Assembly: GCF_001414055.1 (NCBI RefSeq)
Contig: NZ_CP013002.1
Span: 1,674,001 to 1,738,000, forward strand
From: Caulobacter henricii
Lineage (GTDB): Bacteria; Pseudomonadota; Alphaproteobacteria; Caulobacterales; Caulobacteraceae
DNA length: 64,000 nucleotides
Reading direction: 5' to 3'
The notes under the pieces are model-generated. The model was not told where the DNA came from. It worked only from the letters and a program-made list of their open reading frames with translations, and ran no database searches. This document shows, piece after piece, positions 56,652-63,015 of this stretch. The position numbers were made by a program, and so were the translations under genes. Every line of letters begins with the position of its first letter. Positions within the stretch are counted from its first letter, which is position 1.

Positions 56652-57896
56652 TCAGGTCACGGCGTCGACGGCGGCATAGGCAGGATCGCGCCAAACGCCC
56701 TGATGGATAATCCCGGCCAGGCGATCCACCGCATCCCACACATCCACAAACCGCAGATGCAGGGGCGCGAAGCCGAACCTCAAGGTGGCCGGGGCCCGGA
56801 AGTCGCCGATCACGCCCCGGGCGATCAGGGCCTTCATGATCGGATAGCCCGAGGCATGGTCGAAGGCGATATGCCCGCCGCGGTCGTTCGGGTGGGCCGG
56901 GCTGGTCAGGATAAAGCCGGCGTCAGACAGACGCTCGCCCATCAGGGACTGGAACAGCTGTCCCAAGGCCAGGGATTTCGCCCGGATCGCCCCGGTTCCC
57001 GCCCGCGCGATCATGTCGATCCCGGCCTCGGTTGCCACGAGACTGAGGATCGGCTGAGTGCCGGTCAGCATGCGGCCGATCCCCGTGGCGGGCCGATAGT
57101 CGCGCTCGAAGGCGAAGGGCGCGTCATGGCCCCACCAGCCGGTCATGGGCTGGGTGGCCGTTGCCTGGTGGCGTGTCGCCACGAACAGGAAGGCCGGGCT
57201 GCCGGGGCCCCCGTTCAGATACTTGTAGGTGCAGCCCACTGCAAAGTCGGCGTCGCAGCCGTTCAGGTCGACCTCCAGGGCACCGGCGCTGTGGCAAAGG
57301 TCCCAGATCGCCAGGGCACCGTGGGCATGGGCTTTGGCTGTGAGGCCGGTCATGTTCAGCACATGGGCGGACTTGTAGTGCGCATGGGTCAGGACGACGG
57401 CTGCCACATCGTCGTCTATGGCGGCGGCAAGGTCGTCCAGCTCGGCAAAGCGGATCTGATGCCCTTGGCCGAGCGACTGGACCAGACCCTGGACGACATA
57501 GTTGTTGGTCGGAAAGTTGCTGCCTTCCATGACGATCACCCGACGGTCCGGGCGCAGGGCCAGGGCGGCGGAGACCACACGATAGAGGTTTAGGCCCGTA
57601 CCGTCGGTCAGGACGACTTCTCCCGGCCCGGCTCCGATCAGACCGGCCAGACGGTCGCCAAGCCGGTAGGGCAGATCAAACCACCCCGCCTTGTTCCAGC
57701 TGGTGATCAGGTCCGTCGCCCATTCCTGGCGTGCCGCCTCGGCCACCCGGGTCAGGGCGGCCTTAGGGGCTGGGCCCAGGGAATTGCCATTCAGATAGAT
57801 CACGCCGGCCGGACGCTCGAACTCGTCTACGAAGGCCGCCAGGGGATCAGCGGCGTCCAGGGCCTCGGCGGCGGCGCGGTCAAGCGGGGAGGACAT
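56652..57896 (-). CDS. kynU: Kynureninase
   Basis: KynU (414 residues from the ATG at 57896) cleaves kynurenine to anthranilate and alanine using PLP. Family text includes IYLNGNSLGPAPK near residue 33, TDGTGLNLYRV, MEGSNFPTNNYVVQGL near residue 123, THAHYKSAHVLNM, the PLP-binding DLCHSAGALEVDL and the Schiff-base Lys225 in CTYKYLNGGPGSPAF. A TTG at 57908 would overlap the DUF1190 stop, but the ATG is preferred. kynA and kynB are not adjacent. It is the last gene on the minus-strand arm of the yjf-like cluster. Confidence 0.93.
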   Translation of the reverse strand: MSSPLDRAAAEALDAADPLAAFVDEFERPAGVIYLNGNSLGPAPKAALTRVAEAARQEWATDLITSWNKAGWFDLPYRLGDRLAGLIGAGPGEVVLTDGTGLNLYRVVSAALALRPDRRVIVMEGSNFPTNNYVVQGLVQSLGQGHQIRFAELDDLAAAIDDDVAAVVLTHAHYKSAHVLNMTGLTAKAHAHGALAIWDLCHSAGALEVDLNGCDADFAVGCTYKYLNGGPGSPAFLFVATRHQATATQPMTGWWGHDAPFAFERDYRPATGIGRMLTGTQPILSLVATEAGIDMIARAGTGAIRAKSLALGQLFQSLMGERLSDAGFILTSPAHPNDRGGHIAFDHASGYPIMKALIARGVIGDFRAPATLRFGFAPLHLRFVDVWDAVDRLAGIIHQGVWRDPAYAAVDAVT

Positions 57897-57904
57897 GCTG
57901 CCGG

Positions 57905-58543
57905 TCAACCGCCGAACGACCGGCCGCCGCCAAATCCGCCGCGCGAGATCACCGAACTGCGGCTCTGGACCCGCGCCGGGGCCTCGGCCCGCGACGGCGC
58001 GTCAAAGCTTTCCGAACGGACGCGCGTTCGGCCGGTGACATAGTCGCGCGACAGCGGATAGCCGCCACCGCCGTAATAGGTCCCGTTACGATCGCGATAC
58101 ATGGGCGCGCCGCGATAGCCGCCACCCATGTTGTCGAGCGCCTGACCGATGATGAATCCGGTCAGGAGTGGCGTGAAGAAGCTGCCGCCACCCTGGCTGG
58201 AGCGTGGCACGCACTGGTCGACGCCATAGCGTTCCTCGCAGCTCTGCTGGTCGTTGAACTTGGGGGCGTTCTCGGCACTGTCCTTCTGGGCCTGGGCCAG
58301 GGTCGTTTCGCACTGCTGGGCGGTGAAGTCGCCCGAGGCCTTGCACTCGTCGAGACTGGCAAAGGTGCGGGCCTCGACGGCGCGTCCGGATTGGGCGGCC
58401 GGCGGATCGCCCCACTGGGTGACAGCCGGCGCATTGTCGCAAGCGGTGATAGACACCGCTGCGCCCGCCATCAGGGTGGTCAGGGTCAGGCTGCGCGAGC
58501 GCTTGAGGCGGGGTTGGGCTTGATCGGACATGGGGCGGCTCAT
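57905..58543 (-). CDS. yjfM: DUF1190 (YgiB/YjfM-type) protein
   Basis: The 212-residue product has a hydrophobic N-terminal segment ending in SITACDN, a possible lipobox near residue 35. Cysteine-bearing blocks follow: FASLDECKASGDFTAQQCETTL and DQQSCEERYGVDQCVPR, typical of DUF1190/YgiB. It ends in a Gly/Tyr/Arg/Ser-rich tail (GGYPLSRDYVTG then RGGFGGGRSFGG). YgiB relatives pair with YgiC-like ligases. It overlaps the DUF350 gene by 4 bases. The function is not known. Confidence 0.85.
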   Translation of the reverse strand: MSRPMSDQAQPRLKRSRSLTLTTLMAGAAVSITACDNAPAVTQWGDPPAAQSGRAVEARTFASLDECKASGDFTAQQCETTLAQAQKDSAENAPKFNDQQSCEERYGVDQCVPRSSQGGGSFFTPLLTGFIIGQALDNMGGGYRGAPMYRDRNGTYYGGGGYPLSRDYVTGRTRVRSESFDAPSRAEAPARVQSRSSVISRGGFGGGRSFGG

Positions 58544-58953
58544 GACGTCATGCAGGCGGCATTGATCAGGCCCACGGCCAGGGAGATGCTGGCCAGATAG
58601 ACCCCGGCGGCCAGTTCGCCGCGCTCGATGCGGGCAGCGACGTCCTTCATCACCACCACGCGGATCAGGGTGAAGGCGGCGATCTGGATGATGCCGGCCA
58701 GGGCGGCCCAGGCGCAGAACTCGACCAGCGAGACGGTATGGCTGAGGGCCGAGGCCAGGGGCAGGACATAGCCGACCAGGGCACCGCCGAGGGCGAGGGC
58801 GGCAGCGACATTACCCTCCCGGATCAGCTTGCCCTCATGATAGGGCGTCACCCACTGGTAGATGACCTTGAAGGCCACGGTGAACAGGCCGGCGGCGATG
58901 AAGGCCACCAGAAAGGCGAGGGCGCTGGTGGCGAACCCCTGAAGATCAAACAT
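58540..58953 (-). CDS. yjfL: DUF350 membrane protein (YjfL type)
   Basis: This 137-residue protein has four hydrophobic helices and the DUF350 pattern: LVAFIAAGLFTVAFKVIYQW near residue 17, GNVAAALALGGALVGYVLPLA near residue 47, and a late GVYLASISLAVGLINAACM. It is an inner-membrane protein with no enzyme motif. In E. coli the yjfL neighbours are yjfK and yjfM, as here. It overlaps the DUF1190 gene by 4 bases and follows DUF2491 by 17 bases. Confidence 0.88.
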   Translation of the reverse strand: MFDLQGFATSALAFLVAFIAAGLFTVAFKVIYQWVTPYHEGKLIREGNVAAALALGGALVGYVLPLASALSHTVSLVEFCAWAALAGIIQIAAFTLIRVVVMKDVAARIERGELAAGVYLASISLAVGLINAACMTS

Positions 58954-58970
58954 GGTCTGTCTCTTTCCGT

Positions 58971-59612
58971 TCAGGCTTTGAATTCGCCGGCTTCCAGCGG
59001 AATGCCGAGCATGATCTCGAACGAGACCTCATGGTCTTCGCTCTCCTGCTCGATGGCGAGCAGTAACTCACGGCCGTCACCCGGCAGGTCGCGGGCGAAC
59101 AGCATGCAGGTCTGGAAGATCCGCCGGTCGGGAACGCCGTCCCGGTCATCATGCAGGTCTTCCCAGAAGGTGACGGGGTCCTGGTGTTCGGCTTCATCGC
59201 CAAACCACAGGCGGTGATAGTCCGGCAGGCCCTTGGCCGTGAAGGTGCGGGCCTGCAGCCGGGCGGCCCAGGCCTCACGATCGGCGCGACCGCCGGGATA
59301 GGCACTGTCCCAGGGCATGAAGACCGTCACGTCGGTCAGGCGCTGGCCTTCACGATCGTCGGAGACAGCCTGAAACATCACATGATCATCGGTATAGAAG
59401 CGATGGACGAAGCCGCCGTCCTTCAGGTCCACTAGGCCCTGGGCGGAGATCTCGAGCGTGTCGCGGTCCAGGGAGAACTGGGTATCGCCGCCAAAACGCC
59501 GCCAGGCCAGGGTGTCGAGCCAGACGGTTCGACCCAGGGTGACATTGCGAATGGCGGGCAGGGCCGGCGCGGCGAGCGCAGCGTCCTTGCGTCCGAAAAG
59601 CTTGCTGAACAT
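58971..59612 (-). CDS. yjfK: DUF2491 (YjfK-type) protein
   Basis: The 213-residue soluble protein matches the YjfK/DUF2491 family. It begins MFSKLFGRKDAALAAPALPA, then NVTLGRTVWLDTLAWRRFGGD, ISAQGLVDLKDGGFVHRFYTD and PVTFWEDLHDDRDGVPDRRIFQ. It has no signal peptide and no known catalytic motif. It heads the minus-strand arm, 173 bases from the divergent DUF2170 gene. That gap probably holds both promoters, though I could not fix them. Confidence 0.85.
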   Translation of the reverse strand: MFSKLFGRKDAALAAPALPAIRNVTLGRTVWLDTLAWRRFGGDTQFSLDRDTLEISAQGLVDLKDGGFVHRFYTDDHVMFQAVSDDREGQRLTDVTVFMPWDSAYPGGRADREAWAARLQARTFTAKGLPDYHRLWFGDEAEHQDPVTFWEDLHDDRDGVPDRRIFQTCMLFARDLPGDGRELLLAIEQESEDHEVSFEIMLGIPLEAGEFKA

Positions 59613-59785
59613 CGAAAGCGGACCCGGTGGCGACTCCCTCTACCTGTACGACGCGCGGTGCTTCTGCAAAAGGGCCCGCGCCATTACCAACTTGTCATGG
59701 GCAAGGTTTTCGCGAGGCTCTCGACGACTGGCATTCGGCCTCCCATCTTGTATGAAACGCCATGACCTCTAGAGGATGAATCCCC

Positions 59786-60211
59786 ATGACGACCGCCGCC
59801 TGGACTGTTCGCTCGCTGCAGGCCGCCCTGTCCACAAGGGGTGGCGAGGCTCTGACGGCCCGGGTCGTCGAAGGCGCGGATCCGATCCTGCTGGTCACCA
59901 TGCACGAGCAGGGCGACCTGGAGATCTTCGTCAGCGCCAGCGATCAGCAGATCGCGGCTTCGGTCCTGTTGTGGCCGGTCGACGAACAGGAAGATCGCCA
60001 CGCCTTCAACGAGTTCCTGCTCAAGGCCCAGAAACTGGTGCCTCTGTCGAACTTCGGCATCGGCACAGTCGGTGACCGTGACTATTACGAACTGTTCGGC
60101 GAACTGGCACCGTCCTCGTCGCTCGATGACATTCTGATCGAACTGCGCGTGCTGGCCGAAAATGCCATCGAGGCCGCGTCCGATCTGCGCTCCTCCTTCA
60201 CTCCCGCCTGA
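59786..60211 (+). CDS. yjfI: DUF2170 (YjfI-type) protein
   Basis: The 141-residue product belongs to the YjfI/DUF2170 family. Blocks include ILLVTMHEQGDLEIFVSASD near residue 33, ASVLLWPVDEQEDRHAFNEF and LVPLSNFGIGTVGDRDYYEL, then a helical C-terminus. It is soluble with no signal peptide. It opens the plus-strand arm, 22 bases before the PspA-like gene. The function is unknown; it may be a partner or regulator of the PspA protein. Confidence 0.85.
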   Translation: MTTAAWTVRSLQAALSTRGGEALTARVVEGADPILLVTMHEQGDLEIFVSASDQQIAASVLLWPVDEQEDRHAFNEFLLKAQKLVPLSNFGIGTVGDRDYYELFGELAPSSSLDDILIELRVLAENAIEAASDLRSSFTPA

Positions 60212-60233
60212 AATCGTTCCCGGAGACCCCCCG

Positions 60234-60974
60234 ATGTCCATCTGGCGCAAGCTGTTCACCCTGGGCCGCGCAGGCGCGCATGACGCCACGGCCGCCGTCG
60301 TCGACGCCAATGCCATCCGGATCCTGGACCAGGAAATCCGCGATGCCGACACCGCCCAGGGCAAGGCCCGTGACGACCTGGCCACCCTCGTGGCCCGCCG
60401 GCGCATCCTGGAGAAGGAAGTGTCCAGCTTCCGCGAGCAGGTGACCAAGTACGAAGGCTCGGCCCGCGCGGCTGTCGGCAAGGGCGACATGGATCTTGCC
60501 CGTCAGGTCGCTCAGCGCATCGCAGACCTCGAGCAGGACATTGCCCTGAAGGAGCCCCAGATCGAGGGCATGCGTCAGGCCGAGGACCAGCTTCATCAGG
60601 CGATCACCGCCACGGATCGCCGGGTTGAAACCCTGCGCCGTGAGGTCGAGGTCGTGAAGGTCAATGAATCTGTTCAGAAGGCCCAGGCTGCGGTGGCGGC
60701 ACGAGGCGCGGGTGCAGGTTCGTCCCTGGGTTCGGCCGCCGACAGCCTCGCCCGGATCAAGGAGCGTCAGGCCATTCGTGGCGAGCGCATCAAGGCCGCC
60801 GGCGAACTGGAAGACCGCCGTACGGGCGCGGACCTTGACGAGAAGCTGCGCCTGGCCGGGATTGGTCCGGGTCAGTCCTCGGCCGATGACATTCTGGCGC
60901 GTCTCGCCCCTCCGGCCGCAGCGCCGCTGCAGATCGAGCAGAAGTCGGCCGATCCCAAAGCCAGCGACGCCTGA
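60234..60974 (+). CDS. yjfJ: PspA/IM30-family membrane-remodelling protein (YjfJ type)
   Basis: The 246-residue protein begins MSIWRKLFTLGRAGAHDATA and has the long coiled coil of PspA/IM30 (LDQEIRDADTAQGKARDD, then KEVSSFREQVTKYEGSARAA). These proteins are bacterial ESCRT-III relatives that polymerise on damaged or stressed inner membrane. The C-terminus is variable and disordered (about residues 160-246), with Ala/Gly and charged repeats. The ATG at 60234 follows CGGAGA. It is directly followed by the glutathionylspermidine-synthase-like gene, 5 bases later. Confidence 0.88.
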   Translation: MSIWRKLFTLGRAGAHDATAAVVDANAIRILDQEIRDADTAQGKARDDLATLVARRRILEKEVSSFREQVTKYEGSARAAVGKGDMDLARQVAQRIADLEQDIALKEPQIEGMRQAEDQLHQAITATDRRVETLRREVEVVKVNESVQKAQAAVAARGAGAGSSLGSAADSLARIKERQAIRGERIKAAGELEDRRTGADLDEKLRLAGIGPGQSSADDILARLAPPAAAPLQIEQKSADPKASDA

Positions 60975-60979
60975 TCCGC

Positions 60980-62137
60980 GTGCGTCGACTTGATCTGACG
61001 CCCCGACCAGACTGGCAGGCGAAGGCCGACGCGGTCGGTTTCGTCTACCACCACACGGACGGCCAGCCCTATTGGGATGAGTCGGTGGCCTATGCCTTCA
61101 CCCTGGCCCAGATCGAAGGCGATCTGGAGCCGGCGGCGGAAGCGCTGCACGAGCTTTGCCTCGACCTCGTCGATGAGGCGGTGGGGAGCGAGGCGCTGAT
61201 GACCCGGCTGGCGATCCCGGCCGAGCATCAGGACTTCATCGCTGCCTCATGGCGGGCCCGCGAGCCCTCGCTCTATGGCCGCTTTGACTTCGGTTATGAC
61301 GGCTCAGGCCCGCCCAAGCTCTATGAGTACAATGCCGACACGCCCACCAGCGTGTTCGAGGCGGCGACCTTTCAGTGGCTCTGGCTGGAAGACCTCATGG
61401 CGTCAGGCGCGCTACCCGCGGGAACCGATCAGTTCAACAGCCTGTTCGAGGCCTTGCGGGACCGCTTCGCAACCCTGTTCCCGACCGGCGGCTTCGTGCA
61501 TTTCGCAAGTGATGCCTCGGCCATTGAGGATCGCCAGACCGTGCGCTTCCTGGAGGACCTAGCCCTTCAGGCCGGGCTCGACCCCCGGTTCGTCGCGATC
61601 GATGCCATTGGGGTGAACGCTGAGGGCCAGTTTGTCGACAGCGAGGGGTTCCTCCTGCAGGCAGCATTCAAGCTCTATCCCTGGGAGTTCATGCTGCGGG
61701 AGCCATATGCGGTCCATCTGAAGACCGCCGCCGTGCGCTGGCTTGAGCCCTCCTGGAAGGCGATCCTGTCGAACAAGGGCATCCTGCCCCTGCTCTGGGA
61801 GCGGCATCCCGGCCACCCCAATCTTCTGGAAGCCTATTTCGAAGATGACCCGCGTGTGTCGAACCTGGGCCCGCGCCATGTGCGCAAGCCGCTGTTTTCG
61901 CGCGAAGGGGCCAATGTCGAGATCATCGGCGGGAATGAACCGGTTCTGGACCAGGGCTATGGCCGGGAGGGCGCCATAGTGCAGGCCTTCCACCCGCCAC
62001 CGACCTTTGCCGGCAGGCATCCTGTGGTCGGGGCCTGGATGGTGGGCAACCGGCCGGCGGGCATCGGCATTCGCGAGGATGACAGCGTGGTGACCAAAAA
62101 CCTGGCGCGTTTCGTGCCGCATATCATCGAGGCCTGA
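60980..62137 (+). CDS. yjfC: Glutathionylspermidine-synthase-like ATP-grasp ligase (YjfC/YgiC type)
   Basis: The 385-residue protein matches the ATP-grasp synthetase domain of glutathionylspermidine synthase without its amidase half, as in E. coli YgiC and YjfC. Marks are YGRFDFGYDGSGPPKLYEYN near residue 95, DTPTSVFEAATFQWLW, LSNKGILPLLWERHPGHPN near residue 265, KPLFSREGANVEII near residue 302 and the metal/ATP-binding region near EDDSVVTKN. It probably joins an amine to a carboxylate using ATP. Start is GTG at 60980. It closes the plus-strand arm of the yjf-like cluster. Confidence 0.88.
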   Translation: MRRLDLTPRPDWQAKADAVGFVYHHTDGQPYWDESVAYAFTLAQIEGDLEPAAEALHELCLDLVDEAVGSEALMTRLAIPAEHQDFIAASWRAREPSLYGRFDFGYDGSGPPKLYEYNADTPTSVFEAATFQWLWLEDLMASGALPAGTDQFNSLFEALRDRFATLFPTGGFVHFASDASAIEDRQTVRFLEDLALQAGLDPRFVAIDAIGVNAEGQFVDSEGFLLQAAFKLYPWEFMLREPYAVHLKTAAVRWLEPSWKAILSNKGILPLLWERHPGHPNLLEAYFEDDPRVSNLGPRHVRKPLFSREGANVEIIGGNEPVLDQGYGREGAIVQAFHPPPTFAGRHPVVGAWMVGNRPAGIGIREDDSVVTKNLARFVPHIIEA

Positions 62138-62290: not shown

Positions 62291-62635
62291 ATGAGTTCGG
62301 AACAGGATAACGCGGGTTCCAGCATCGCCGCGATCTTGGCGGCCGTGTCGGCGGAAATGTCCATCGCTGCAGAGGCCTGTGGCAAGCTGGATGACGCCCT
62401 GGGTCAGATCCTGGCGGTCAGCCCGCCGGAGAGCCGCAATCAGGTCATGCAGGAACTGCATACCGTCGACCTTCTCGCGCAACACATCACGGCGGTGACG
62501 GACTTCACCCACCGTCTGGCCCTGATCGCATCGACTGATGATGCGCTAGAGGTCGATGAAGCCCTGTCGGCCATCACCCTGGGCGCAGTCGCTGAACGTC
62601 TTCGCGCCAGCCTGGCAGCCGCCAAGGCGGCGTGA
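62291..62635 (+). CDS. Small helical protein of unknown function
   Basis: The 114-residue product starts at an ATG directly preceded by GGGGGAAGA. It is predicted to be mostly helical: SIAAILAAVSAEMSIAAEAC, QVMQELHTVDLLAQHITAVT and LSAITLGAVAERLRASLAAA. There is no signal peptide and one cysteine. The arrangement resembles small four-helix-bundle proteins, but I cannot assign a family. The ArsC-like gene follows 23 bases later and may be co-transcribed. Confidence 0.6.
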   Translation: MSSEQDNAGSSIAAILAAVSAEMSIAAEACGKLDDALGQILAVSPPESRNQVMQELHTVDLLAQHITAVTDFTHRLALIASTDDALEVDEALSAITLGAVAERLRASLAAAKAA

Positions 62636-62658
62636 CGAGCGACGGGGGGAGCGGATCC

Positions 62659-63015
62659 ATGACCGTGACCGTCTATGGCATCAAGGCCTGTGACACGATG
62701 AAGAAGGCTCGGGACTGGCTGGACGACCATGGGGTCGTCCACGCCTTTCACGACTACAAGTCCGTCGGGATCGACCGGGAACGTCTTGTCCGCTGGGTCG
62801 AGGCCCTGGGGTGGGAGGCGGTTCTGAACCGGGCCGGTACGACCTTCCGCAAGCTGACAGAGTCGCAGAAGCAAGACCTGGACGCCGCAAAGGCTGTGGA
62901 TTTGATGCTGGCCCAGCCCTCGATGATCAAGCGGCCCATGCTCGACATCAATGGAGCGTTGACCGCGGGCTTCAAGCCGGATCTCTATGCGCGGCTGTTC
63001 GAAGCGGCCGCTTGA
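62659..63015 (+). CDS. ArsC-family (YffB/Spx-like) thioredoxin-fold protein
   Basis: This 118-residue protein has the ArsC/Spx fold with the active-site region TVYGIKACDTMKKARDWL (residues 4-21). It keeps one N-terminal cysteine, like YffB, rather than the Cys-x2-Cys of glutaredoxins. RAGTTFRKL near residue 65 and MIKRPML near residue 92 (substrate-binding Lys-Arg-Pro) are conserved family blocks. Relatives reduce arsenate or glutathionylated thiols, or act as regulators. The ATG at 62659 with GGGGGGAG upstream is chosen over an upstream GTG that touches the previous stop. Confidence 0.88.
   Translation: MTVTVYGIKACDTMKKARDWLDDHGVVHAFHDYKSVGIDRERLVRWVEALGWEAVLNRAGTTFRKLTESQKQDLDAAKAVDLMLAQPSMIKRPMLDINGALTAGFKPDLYARLFEAAA

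What the first reader, a model, noticed from the sequence alone, without database searches (positions are those of the whole stretch)
57905..62137. Complete yjfI/J/K/L/M/C-type gene set split into two divergent operons
Seen: the plus arm carries DUF2170, a PspA/IM30 protein and a glutathionylspermidine-synthase-like ATP-grasp ligase. The minus arm carries DUF2491, DUF350 and DUF1190. These are the six families of the E. coli yjfIJKLMC operon, here rearranged around a 173-base divergent control region. Established: PspA/IM30 proteins remodel stressed membranes, and GSPS-like enzymes form amide bonds. Inference: this is a conserved membrane-stress or envelope-modification system in which a ligase product, a DUF350 membrane protein and a PspA coat cooperate. 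The function is largely undescribed.
Basis: partly seen in the sequence, partly recalled or inferred. Interest (0 to 1): 0.75.

Follow-up and report, generated by a model that had tools for sequence, protein, structure and literature searches.

The report
Spermidine ligase with glycine-tailed lipoprotein partner
This six-gene cluster, already known from E. coli, pairs an enzyme of a family that ties spermidine to peptides with a predicted lipoprotein ending in two glycines; a tail of this kind accompanies such enzymes in nearly every sampled bacterial family that has them, so the tail is likely the enzyme's still unidentified natural target.

Summary
In detail: DUF2170, PspA and a GSPS-type ligase (+ arm) and DUF2491, DUF350 and DUF1190 (- arm) flank a 173-base control region and match the E. 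coli yjfI-J-K-L-M-C operon. The cluster type is already described (Ravi 2024), so the gene set itself is not new. The divergent layout is not local: all 57 related loci fetched share it (one truncated). New here: the DUF1190 protein ends in RGGFG, a variable linker and a terminal Gly-Gly, and this tail tracks the ligase. Of 88 stand-alone ligase loci sampled across the phylum, 77 have a nearby open frame with a strict version of the tail; 9 of the other 11 have a variant or a more distant copy. Of 12 loci of bifunctional glutathionylspermidine synthetase/amidase, none has one on the ligase's strand (one antisense match). The tail persists where the partner's body falls below the DUF1190 cut-off. 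Best reading: the ligase conjugates spermidine to the partner's C-terminus (inferred, untested). DUF2170, PspA and DUF2491 are an all-or-none add-on (25 of 88) to a ligase-plus-tail core. Against it: the tail is predicted periplasmic and the ligase cytosolic, a minority of tails end in Ser, and no chemistry was tested.

The parts
57905..58543 (-). DUF1190 protein (yjfM homologue), 212 aa; predicted lipoprotein signal ending SITAC|D; C-terminus SRGGFGGGRSFGG-stop, the proposed ligase target
   Evidence: Pfam DUF1190 129.6 bits; tail seen in homologues; AlphaFold gives residues 182-212 pLDDT under 50. The lipobox is my reading of the sequence.
58540..58953 (-). DUF350 membrane protein (yjfL homologue), 137 aa; overlaps the DUF1190 start by 4 bases
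   Evidence: Pfam DUF350 123 bits; 39% identical to YjfL
58971..59612 (-). DUF2491 protein (yjfK homologue), 213 aa, first gene of the minus arm
   Evidence: Pfam DUF2491 181.8 bits; model mean pLDDT 72, no confident fold match
59613..59785 (.). 173-base divergent control region; holds TGGC-N18-TATG toward DUF2170 (59730-59755) and, just upstream, a block conserved among Caulobacter-type loci (from 59718)
   Evidence: TGGC-N18-TATG in 46 of 58 such regions
59786..60211 (+). DUF2170 protein (yjfI/BacA homologue, CesT/Tir-like), 141 aa
   Evidence: Pfam DUF2170 147.5 bits; solved relative 8q8o, E 3e-22
60234..60974 (+). PspA/IM30 protein (yjfJ homologue), 246 aa
   Evidence: Pfam PspA_IM30 167.6 bits (frame given from 60231); only PspA_IM30 match in the window's genome
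60980..62137 (+). Stand-alone GSPS-type ATP-grasp ligase (yjfC/ygiC homologue), 385 aa, GTG start, no amidase domain
   Evidence: Pfam GSP_synth 475.2 bits over the whole profile; nearest solved structures YgiC 7uk8 424.7 bits and YjfC 7uk6 387.1 bits; catalytic residues kept

Best explanation
The six genes are a divergently arranged yjfIJKLM-C cluster whose ligase likely attaches spermidine to the C-terminal glycine of its predicted lipoprotein partner (the DUF1190 protein). Shown from sequence: the ligase keeps the GspS catalytic residues and lacks the amidase domain; the partner has an N-terminal membrane anchor and ends in RGGFG, a linker of variable length and Gly-Gly; this tail goes with the stand-alone ligase and not with the bifunctional GspSA. 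Inferred: GspS activates the C-terminal glycine of glutathione and couples it to spermidine (established, recalled), so the stand-alone ligase would do the same to the glycine end of its partner, putting a cationic polyamine cap on an envelope lipoprotein, probably before export. DUF350 would be the membrane component next to it. The DUF2170-PspA-DUF2491 block, present only in part of these loci, would tie the capped lipoprotein to PspA-based membrane repair. The last two steps are the weakest.
For: (1) 62 of 69 DUF1190 matches examined lie within 5 kb of a ligase; all 62 carry an RGGFG-like motif, 50 end in GG and 60 in G or S; of the 7 others, 6 lack motif and GG end, and 1 (G114, ligase on another contig) has both. 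(2) Of all 102 GSP_synth matches in 398 genomes, 88 are stand-alone: a strict tail frame is near 78, of which I discount one (L126) as a spurious long frame; 20 of 23 families. (3) The motif was defined on DUF1190 first; of 26 ligase loci without an adjacent Pfam DUF1190, 22 gave a strict hit (21 without L126). (4) 12 GspSA loci: 1 strict hit, antisense; 0 on the ligase's strand. (5) GG at the very end in 65 of 78 against 4.6 expected from tail composition; 8 of 1359 other frames end GG. E. coli YjfM and YgiB both end GG. (6) 116 of the 120 best database relatives end GG. (7) Ligase R101, D103, E116, N118, K266, K303: 87-88 of 88, and 12 of 12 GspSA.
Against: No chemistry was tested. Topology: 76 of 77 partners have an N-terminal hydrophobic segment or lipobox and 72 have two or more K/R before it, which puts the tail in the periplasm, while the ligase has no signal; modification would have to precede export. 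Not all tails end in glycine: 12 of 77 strict ones end in Ser (the search required G or S), and two DUF1190 proteins end in Thr, one L126-type partner in Glu. Two stand-alone ligases (G460, 30% identical; the second copy in G402) have no tail frame within the 19.5 kb looked at. Supply of spermidine by the carboxyspermidine route is clear in only 5 of the 14 cluster genomes of the order. Many loci are related; most partners share a diverged body (65 of 78 join one similarity group), so the tail may ride on the body's conservation in part.
Confidence: 0.5

Rival explanations
1. The tail docks or regulates the ligase at the membrane, and the ligase makes a free peptidyl-spermidine whose amount reports polyamine or envelope state.
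For: The E. coli enzymes are named peptide-spermidine ligases, and a passage calls them peptidylpolyamine synthetases (PMC12568646); a docking tail would also track the ligase and avoid GspSA.
Against: Docking does not explain why Gly-Gly sits at the very C-terminus in most partners while the linker before it varies from about 7 to over 50 residues.
Confidence: 0.25
2. The Gly/Ser-rich tail is an envelope-binding or structural element of the DUF1190 family with no tie to the ligase's chemistry; the two genes are linked because the DUF1190 body and the ligase share a pathway.
For: Tails are Gly/Ser rich and predicted disordered; most partner bodies join one similarity group, and some small partners score just below the DUF1190 cut-off (E 0.006-0.02); the tail is predicted periplasmic.
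Against: DUF1190 matches without a nearby ligase lack the tail (6 of 7), and partners with unrecognised bodies keep it.
Confidence: 0.2
3. One reading: a membrane-stress system in which a small ligase product, DUF350 and a PspA coat cooperate as the core.
For: All-or-none DUF2170/PspA/DUF2491 block with DUF350 in 25 of 88 loci; heat-tolerance link of yjfIJKL (PMC12492005, passages).
Against: 63 of 88 ligase loci lack that block and 31 lack DUF350 too within the stretch fetched.
Confidence: 0.05

Closest known systems
E. coli yjfI-J-K-L-M-C operon and the 'third group' of CesT/Tir-PspA operons of Ravi et al. 2024 (PMC11237479)
   Same: Same six families; Ravi lists CesT/Tir-PspA, GSPS-like ATP-grasp ligase, DUF350, DUF1190 and DUF2491 (section read).
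   Different: Two divergent arms here; no potassium-channel gene in the cluster, although three relatives of the order have one between DUF2491 and DUF2170 (L122-L124). The C-terminal tail is not mentioned in that section.
E. coli ygiB-ygiC pair
   Same: DUF1190 gene directly before a peptide-spermidine ligase; YgiB also ends RGGFG...GG; the window ligase is closest to YgiC among solved structures.
   Different: Lies next to tolC and has no DUF350, PspA or DUF2170 gene beside it.
Bifunctional glutathionylspermidine synthetase/amidase (GspSA)
   Same: Same ligase fold family and catalytic residues.
   Different: No amidase domain here; GspSA loci lack the tailed partner; Thr121/Thr123, Glu309 and Glu366 of the stand-alone type are replaced in GspSA. 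A passage states YgiC lacks GspS activity (PMC12506659).
RimK (ATP-grasp ligase that extends the C-terminus of ribosomal protein S6; recalled, works-like only)
   Same: An ATP-grasp ligase acting on the C-terminus of one dedicated protein.
   Different: RimK adds glutamate to a ribosomal protein; here a polyamine on an envelope lipoprotein is proposed. No membership is claimed.
Pseudomonas aeruginosa bac cluster (BacA is DUF2170)
   Same: DUF2170 followed by a PspA homologue; BacA structure known (PMC10948618, passages; 8q8o).
   Different: The passages seen mention no spermidine ligase or DUF1190 in it; a sigma-54 site is proposed there, none was identified here.

Membership tests
yjfIJKLMC / Ravi group-three cluster | DUF2170, PspA, DUF2491, DUF350, DUF1190 and GSPS-like ligase in one neighbourhood | tested here: met
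yjfIJKLMC / Ravi group-three cluster | Potassium channel with ligand-sensing domain in the operon | tested here: not met
   No such ORF between 57905 and 62137; present in L122, L123, L124. It is absent from the E. coli operon too and from 6 of 25 I-J-K loci, so I take it as an optional part. Elsewhere in the genome: not searched.
Stand-alone peptide-spermidine ligase (YgiC/YjfC type) | Full-length GSP_synth domain without amidase domain | tested here: met
   385 aa, profile 1-371 of 371; 47% identical to YjfC
Stand-alone peptide-spermidine ligase (YgiC/YjfC type) | Catalytic residues equivalent to GspS R316, D318, E330, N332, K498, K533 (numbering counted on the alignment; roles recalled) | tested here: met
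   R101, D103, E116, N118, K266, K303
Stand-alone peptide-spermidine ligase (YgiC/YjfC type) | Peptide-spermidine ligase activity | not testable with these tools
   needs biochemistry
Bifunctional GspSA | N-terminal amidase domain (about 620 aa in all) | tested here: not met
   the protein is 385 aa with one Pfam domain
DUF1190 family | Pfam PF06693 above cut-off | tested here: met
   129.6 bits, cut-off 22; below the E. coli-specific NCBIfam model cut-off (62.5 of 223)
Classical Psp system (pspABC with pspF) | PspA/IM30 protein | tested here: met
Classical Psp system (pspABC with pspF) | PspB, PspC and PspF genes | not tested
   none beside the cluster among the proteins scanned; the genome was not searched for them
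Protein C-terminal modification by an ATP-grasp ligase (RimK-like mode) | Covalent product on the partner's C-terminus | not testable with these tools
   needs mass spectrometry

The most novel reading that the evidence does not exclude
Stand-alone GSPS-type ligases across the phylum are dedicated protein-modifying enzymes: each caps the C-terminal Gly-Gly of its own envelope lipoprotein with spermidine. This would be a new post-translational modification, genetically encoded as a tail-plus-ligase pair, onto which DUF350 and then a PspA module were added during evolution.
Probability: 0.45. Interest if true: 0.87.

Novelty: new variant of a known kind. Interest (0 to 1): 0.63.

Why it matters
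The E. coli ligases YgiC and YjfC have been solved and named, but I found no natural substrate for them in the papers I could search. If the tail of YgiB and YjfM is that substrate, a conserved uncharacterised gene pair becomes a defined modification system, and the role of polyamines at the bacterial envelope gets a concrete molecular handle. It also reorders the yjf cluster: the ligase and its tailed partner are the constant pair, DUF350 is next, and the PspA block is an optional unit. The idea can be tested with one mass-spectrometry experiment in a laboratory E. coli strain.

Tried and rejected

Rows dropped before counts. Of 102 GSP_synth matches, two were left out (a fragment with a stop in G227 and a 19.6-bit match in G350), leaving 88 stand-alone and 12 bifunctional. 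Of 68 DUF1190 matches, the window's own was left out and two from the order sample (G114, G057) were added, making 69. L126 was counted by the script and discounted by me.
Full report
What is there. The window lies in a 3.96 Mb genome whose nearest DUF2491 relatives are Phenylobacterium and Caulobacter. The minus arm holds DUF2491 (58971-59612), DUF350 (58540-58953) and DUF1190 (57905-58543); the plus arm holds DUF2170 (59786-60211), PspA/IM30 (60234-60974) and a GSPS-type ligase (60980-62137); 173 bases lie between the arms. All six are homologues of the E. coli yjfI, J, K, L, M, C products, weakly for K (24%) and M (21%).

Layout. The scan of genome contigs with a DUF2491 alignment gave 57 distinct loci, mostly Caulobacter, Phenylobacterium and Sphingomonas. 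All 57 have K-L-M against I-J-C; 56 are complete and L058 ends inside DUF2491. In the 120-genome sample of the order, the 13 cluster genomes of the window's family all have DUF2491, DUF350 and DUF1190 on one strand and DUF2170 and the ligase on the other (my reading of the coordinates). G114, of another family, has its DUF1190 on another contig. In three genomes (G027, G017, G114) a potassium-channel gene (Ion_trans_2 and TrkA_N matches in two of them, a TrkA_N match in the partial frame of the third) sits between DUF2491 and DUF2170; in the window it is absent.

Co-occurrence. In the same 120 genomes DUF2491 is in 14, DUF2170 in the same 14, DUF1190 in those 14 plus G057, the ligase in those 14 plus 9 others, DUF350 in 78, PspA in 67. 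In the window's family (25 genomes sampled) PspA is in 13 of 13 genomes with the cluster and 0 of 12 without. Genomes in a family are related, so these are not independent counts.

The tail. Reading the DUF1190 C-termini showed ...SRGGFGG...GG-stop in the intact homologues of the fetched loci, with few exceptions (some rows there are hits cut by a contig end or mis-anchored on the DUF350 frame). E. coli YjfM ends RGGYGRSSSARGHWGG and YgiB ends with RGGFG, a longer linker and SRSMGG. In a sample of 398 genomes of the phylum, DUF1190 is in 63 and the ligase family in 91; 61 of the 63 also have the ligase. I examined 69 DUF1190 matches (67 of this sample's 68, the window's own left out, plus two from the order sample). 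62 lie within 5 kb of a ligase: 56 on the same strand within 250 bases, 6 in the divergent layout. All 62 have an RGGFG-like motif in the last 60 residues; 50 end Gly-Gly, 10 end otherwise in Gly or Ser, 2 in Thr. Of the 7 not near a ligase, 6 have neither motif nor GG end; the seventh is G114.

Test on loci not used to define the motif. I then fetched ligase loci without an adjacent Pfam DUF1190. An open-frame scan found a tailed protein beside most of them: strict pattern in 22 of 26, 21 after discounting L126. Of the other five, L126 has an upstream frame ending SRGGFGGTAAGFGGEGGGE, L273 has RGGWG...SAHS, L261's genome has a strict tail 5.2 kb from the ligase, and L252 (G460) and L254 (second copy in G402) have none in 19.5 kb. 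These partners are 96-241 residues long in the printed cases. Of seven that I scanned against Pfam, none passes a cut-off; three show sub-threshold DUF1190 similarity. Body similarity joins 65 of 78 partners into one group, a second group has 10, and three stand alone, one of them the spurious L126 frame, so most are diverged members of one superfamily rather than separate inventions. Four cysteines and two glycines of RGGFG are among nine invariant columns in 13 diverse DUF1190 proteins.

All ligases. Of 102 matches of the ligase family in the phylum sample, 88 are stand-alone, 12 are bifunctional GspSA (open frames over 600 codons) and two were dropped. Strict tail frames are near 78 of 88 (77 without L126), in 20 of 23 families; 64 of the 78 are directly upstream on the same strand. 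Of the other 11 (10 misses and L126), six (L196, L197, L199, L210, L211, L219) have a DUF1190 with a variant motif or ending, three are L126, L273 and L261 above, and two have none. Of the 12 GspSA loci one has a strict match, antisense; none has one on the ligase's strand.

Terminal Gly-Gly. 65 of 78 strict tails end GG, against 4.6 expected if the last pair were drawn from the rest of the tail (related sequences, so the spread is too narrow to quote as a probability). Among 1359 other gene-like frames of the fetched loci 8 end GG. Of the best 120 of 976 database relatives of a diverse DUF1190 alignment, 116 end GG, 3 end in a single G, and 1 in R (named partial); most are Caulobacter-like, so they add depth, not breadth. 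The distance from motif to terminus varies widely while the end stays.

The ligase. It matches GSP_synth over the whole profile. Nearest solved structures are YgiC (7uk8) and YjfC (7uk6), then trypanothione synthetase and GspSA. Residues aligned to GspS R316, D318, E330, N332, K498 and K533 (numbers counted on the alignment, roles recalled) are R101, D103, E116, N118, K266 and K303, conserved in 87 or 88 of 88 stand-alone and 12 of 12 GspSA ligases. T121, T123, E309 and E366 are near-invariant in the stand-alone type and different in GspSA, which fits a different acyl substrate.

Modules. Around the 88 stand-alone ligases: 31 have none of DUF350, DUF2170, PspA, DUF2491 in the fetched stretch; 32 add DUF350 only; 6 add DUF350 and all three others; 19 add a channel as well. 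DUF2170, PspA and DUF2491 are all-or-none (25 of 25). The 12 GspSA loci have none (tblastn at E 1e-3 with a few queries, stretches of about 5-13 kb, so absences are lower-grade evidence).

How it most likely works. GspS couples the C-terminal glycine of glutathione to spermidine (established, recalled). The E. coli relatives are annotated as peptide-spermidine ligases. A partner that always travels with this ligase, keeps a defined tail and mostly ends in glycine is best explained as its substrate. This step is inferred. The effect would be a polyamine cap on an envelope protein. Where the PspA block is present, DUF2170 (fold of type-III secretion chaperones; BacA, 8q8o; PMC10948618, passages) and PspA would link this to membrane repair; this is speculation. 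The serious difficulty is topology: the ligase would have to act before export.

What is known. PMC11237479 (section 19 read, other passages) describes the gene group, calls DUF1190 a metal-chelating lipoprotein and proposes polyamine monitoring by PspA systems. PMC12492005 (passages) reports yjfIJKL up-regulation in heat-evolved E. coli. PMC12568646 and PMC12506659 (passages) mention the ligases. Six searches found no mention of the tail, but the key enzyme papers are not in the library.

Verdict. The reported cluster is real and of a known type. The pairing of ligase and C-terminal tail is the part worth following: it gives a concrete, easily tested substrate hypothesis for a solved enzyme whose natural target I could not find described.

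Noticed in passing
59730-59755 (control region) and the same place in L002-L058: TGGC-N18-TATG toward the DUF2170 gene in 46 of 58 control regions; the same pattern occurs 54 times in 2.0 Mb of both strands of these loci, about 45 of which are these sites themselves. Sigma factor not assigned.
   Followed up: partly
59683-59698 and about a dozen Caulobacter-type loci: ATTACCAACTTGTCAT is conserved in part of the control regions and absent from the others; one match in the window even with 3 mismatches. Possible operator.
   Followed up: partly
control regions of 13 of the 31 loci aligned (such as L025-L032): A long inverted-repeat element (CCTGACGAAAGTCAGGA ... TCCTGACTTTCGTCAGGATGACG) is inserted between the two arms in some Sphingomonas loci; looks like a REP/MITE-type repeat.
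   Followed up: no
56652-57908: Kynureninase (TIGR01814 above cut-off) reads on from the DUF1190 gene with a 4-base overlap if its TTG start is used; a homologue is near the cluster in only 1 of 57 relatives.
   Followed up: partly
62294-63015: A 113-aa ORF with no Pfam or NCBIfam match overlaps an ArsC/Spx-like gene by 4 bases; both are also beside the cluster in L003.
   Followed up: no
L131 (window genome C1:3507663-3508043): A second DUF350 gene outside the cluster; 78 of 120 genomes of the order have DUF350, most of them without the cluster, so DUF350 has another common setting.
   Followed up: no
[not shown]
   Followed up: partly
L260 2512-3543: Two tail-bearing open frames in a row before one ligase, suggesting a duplicated partner.
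   Followed up: no
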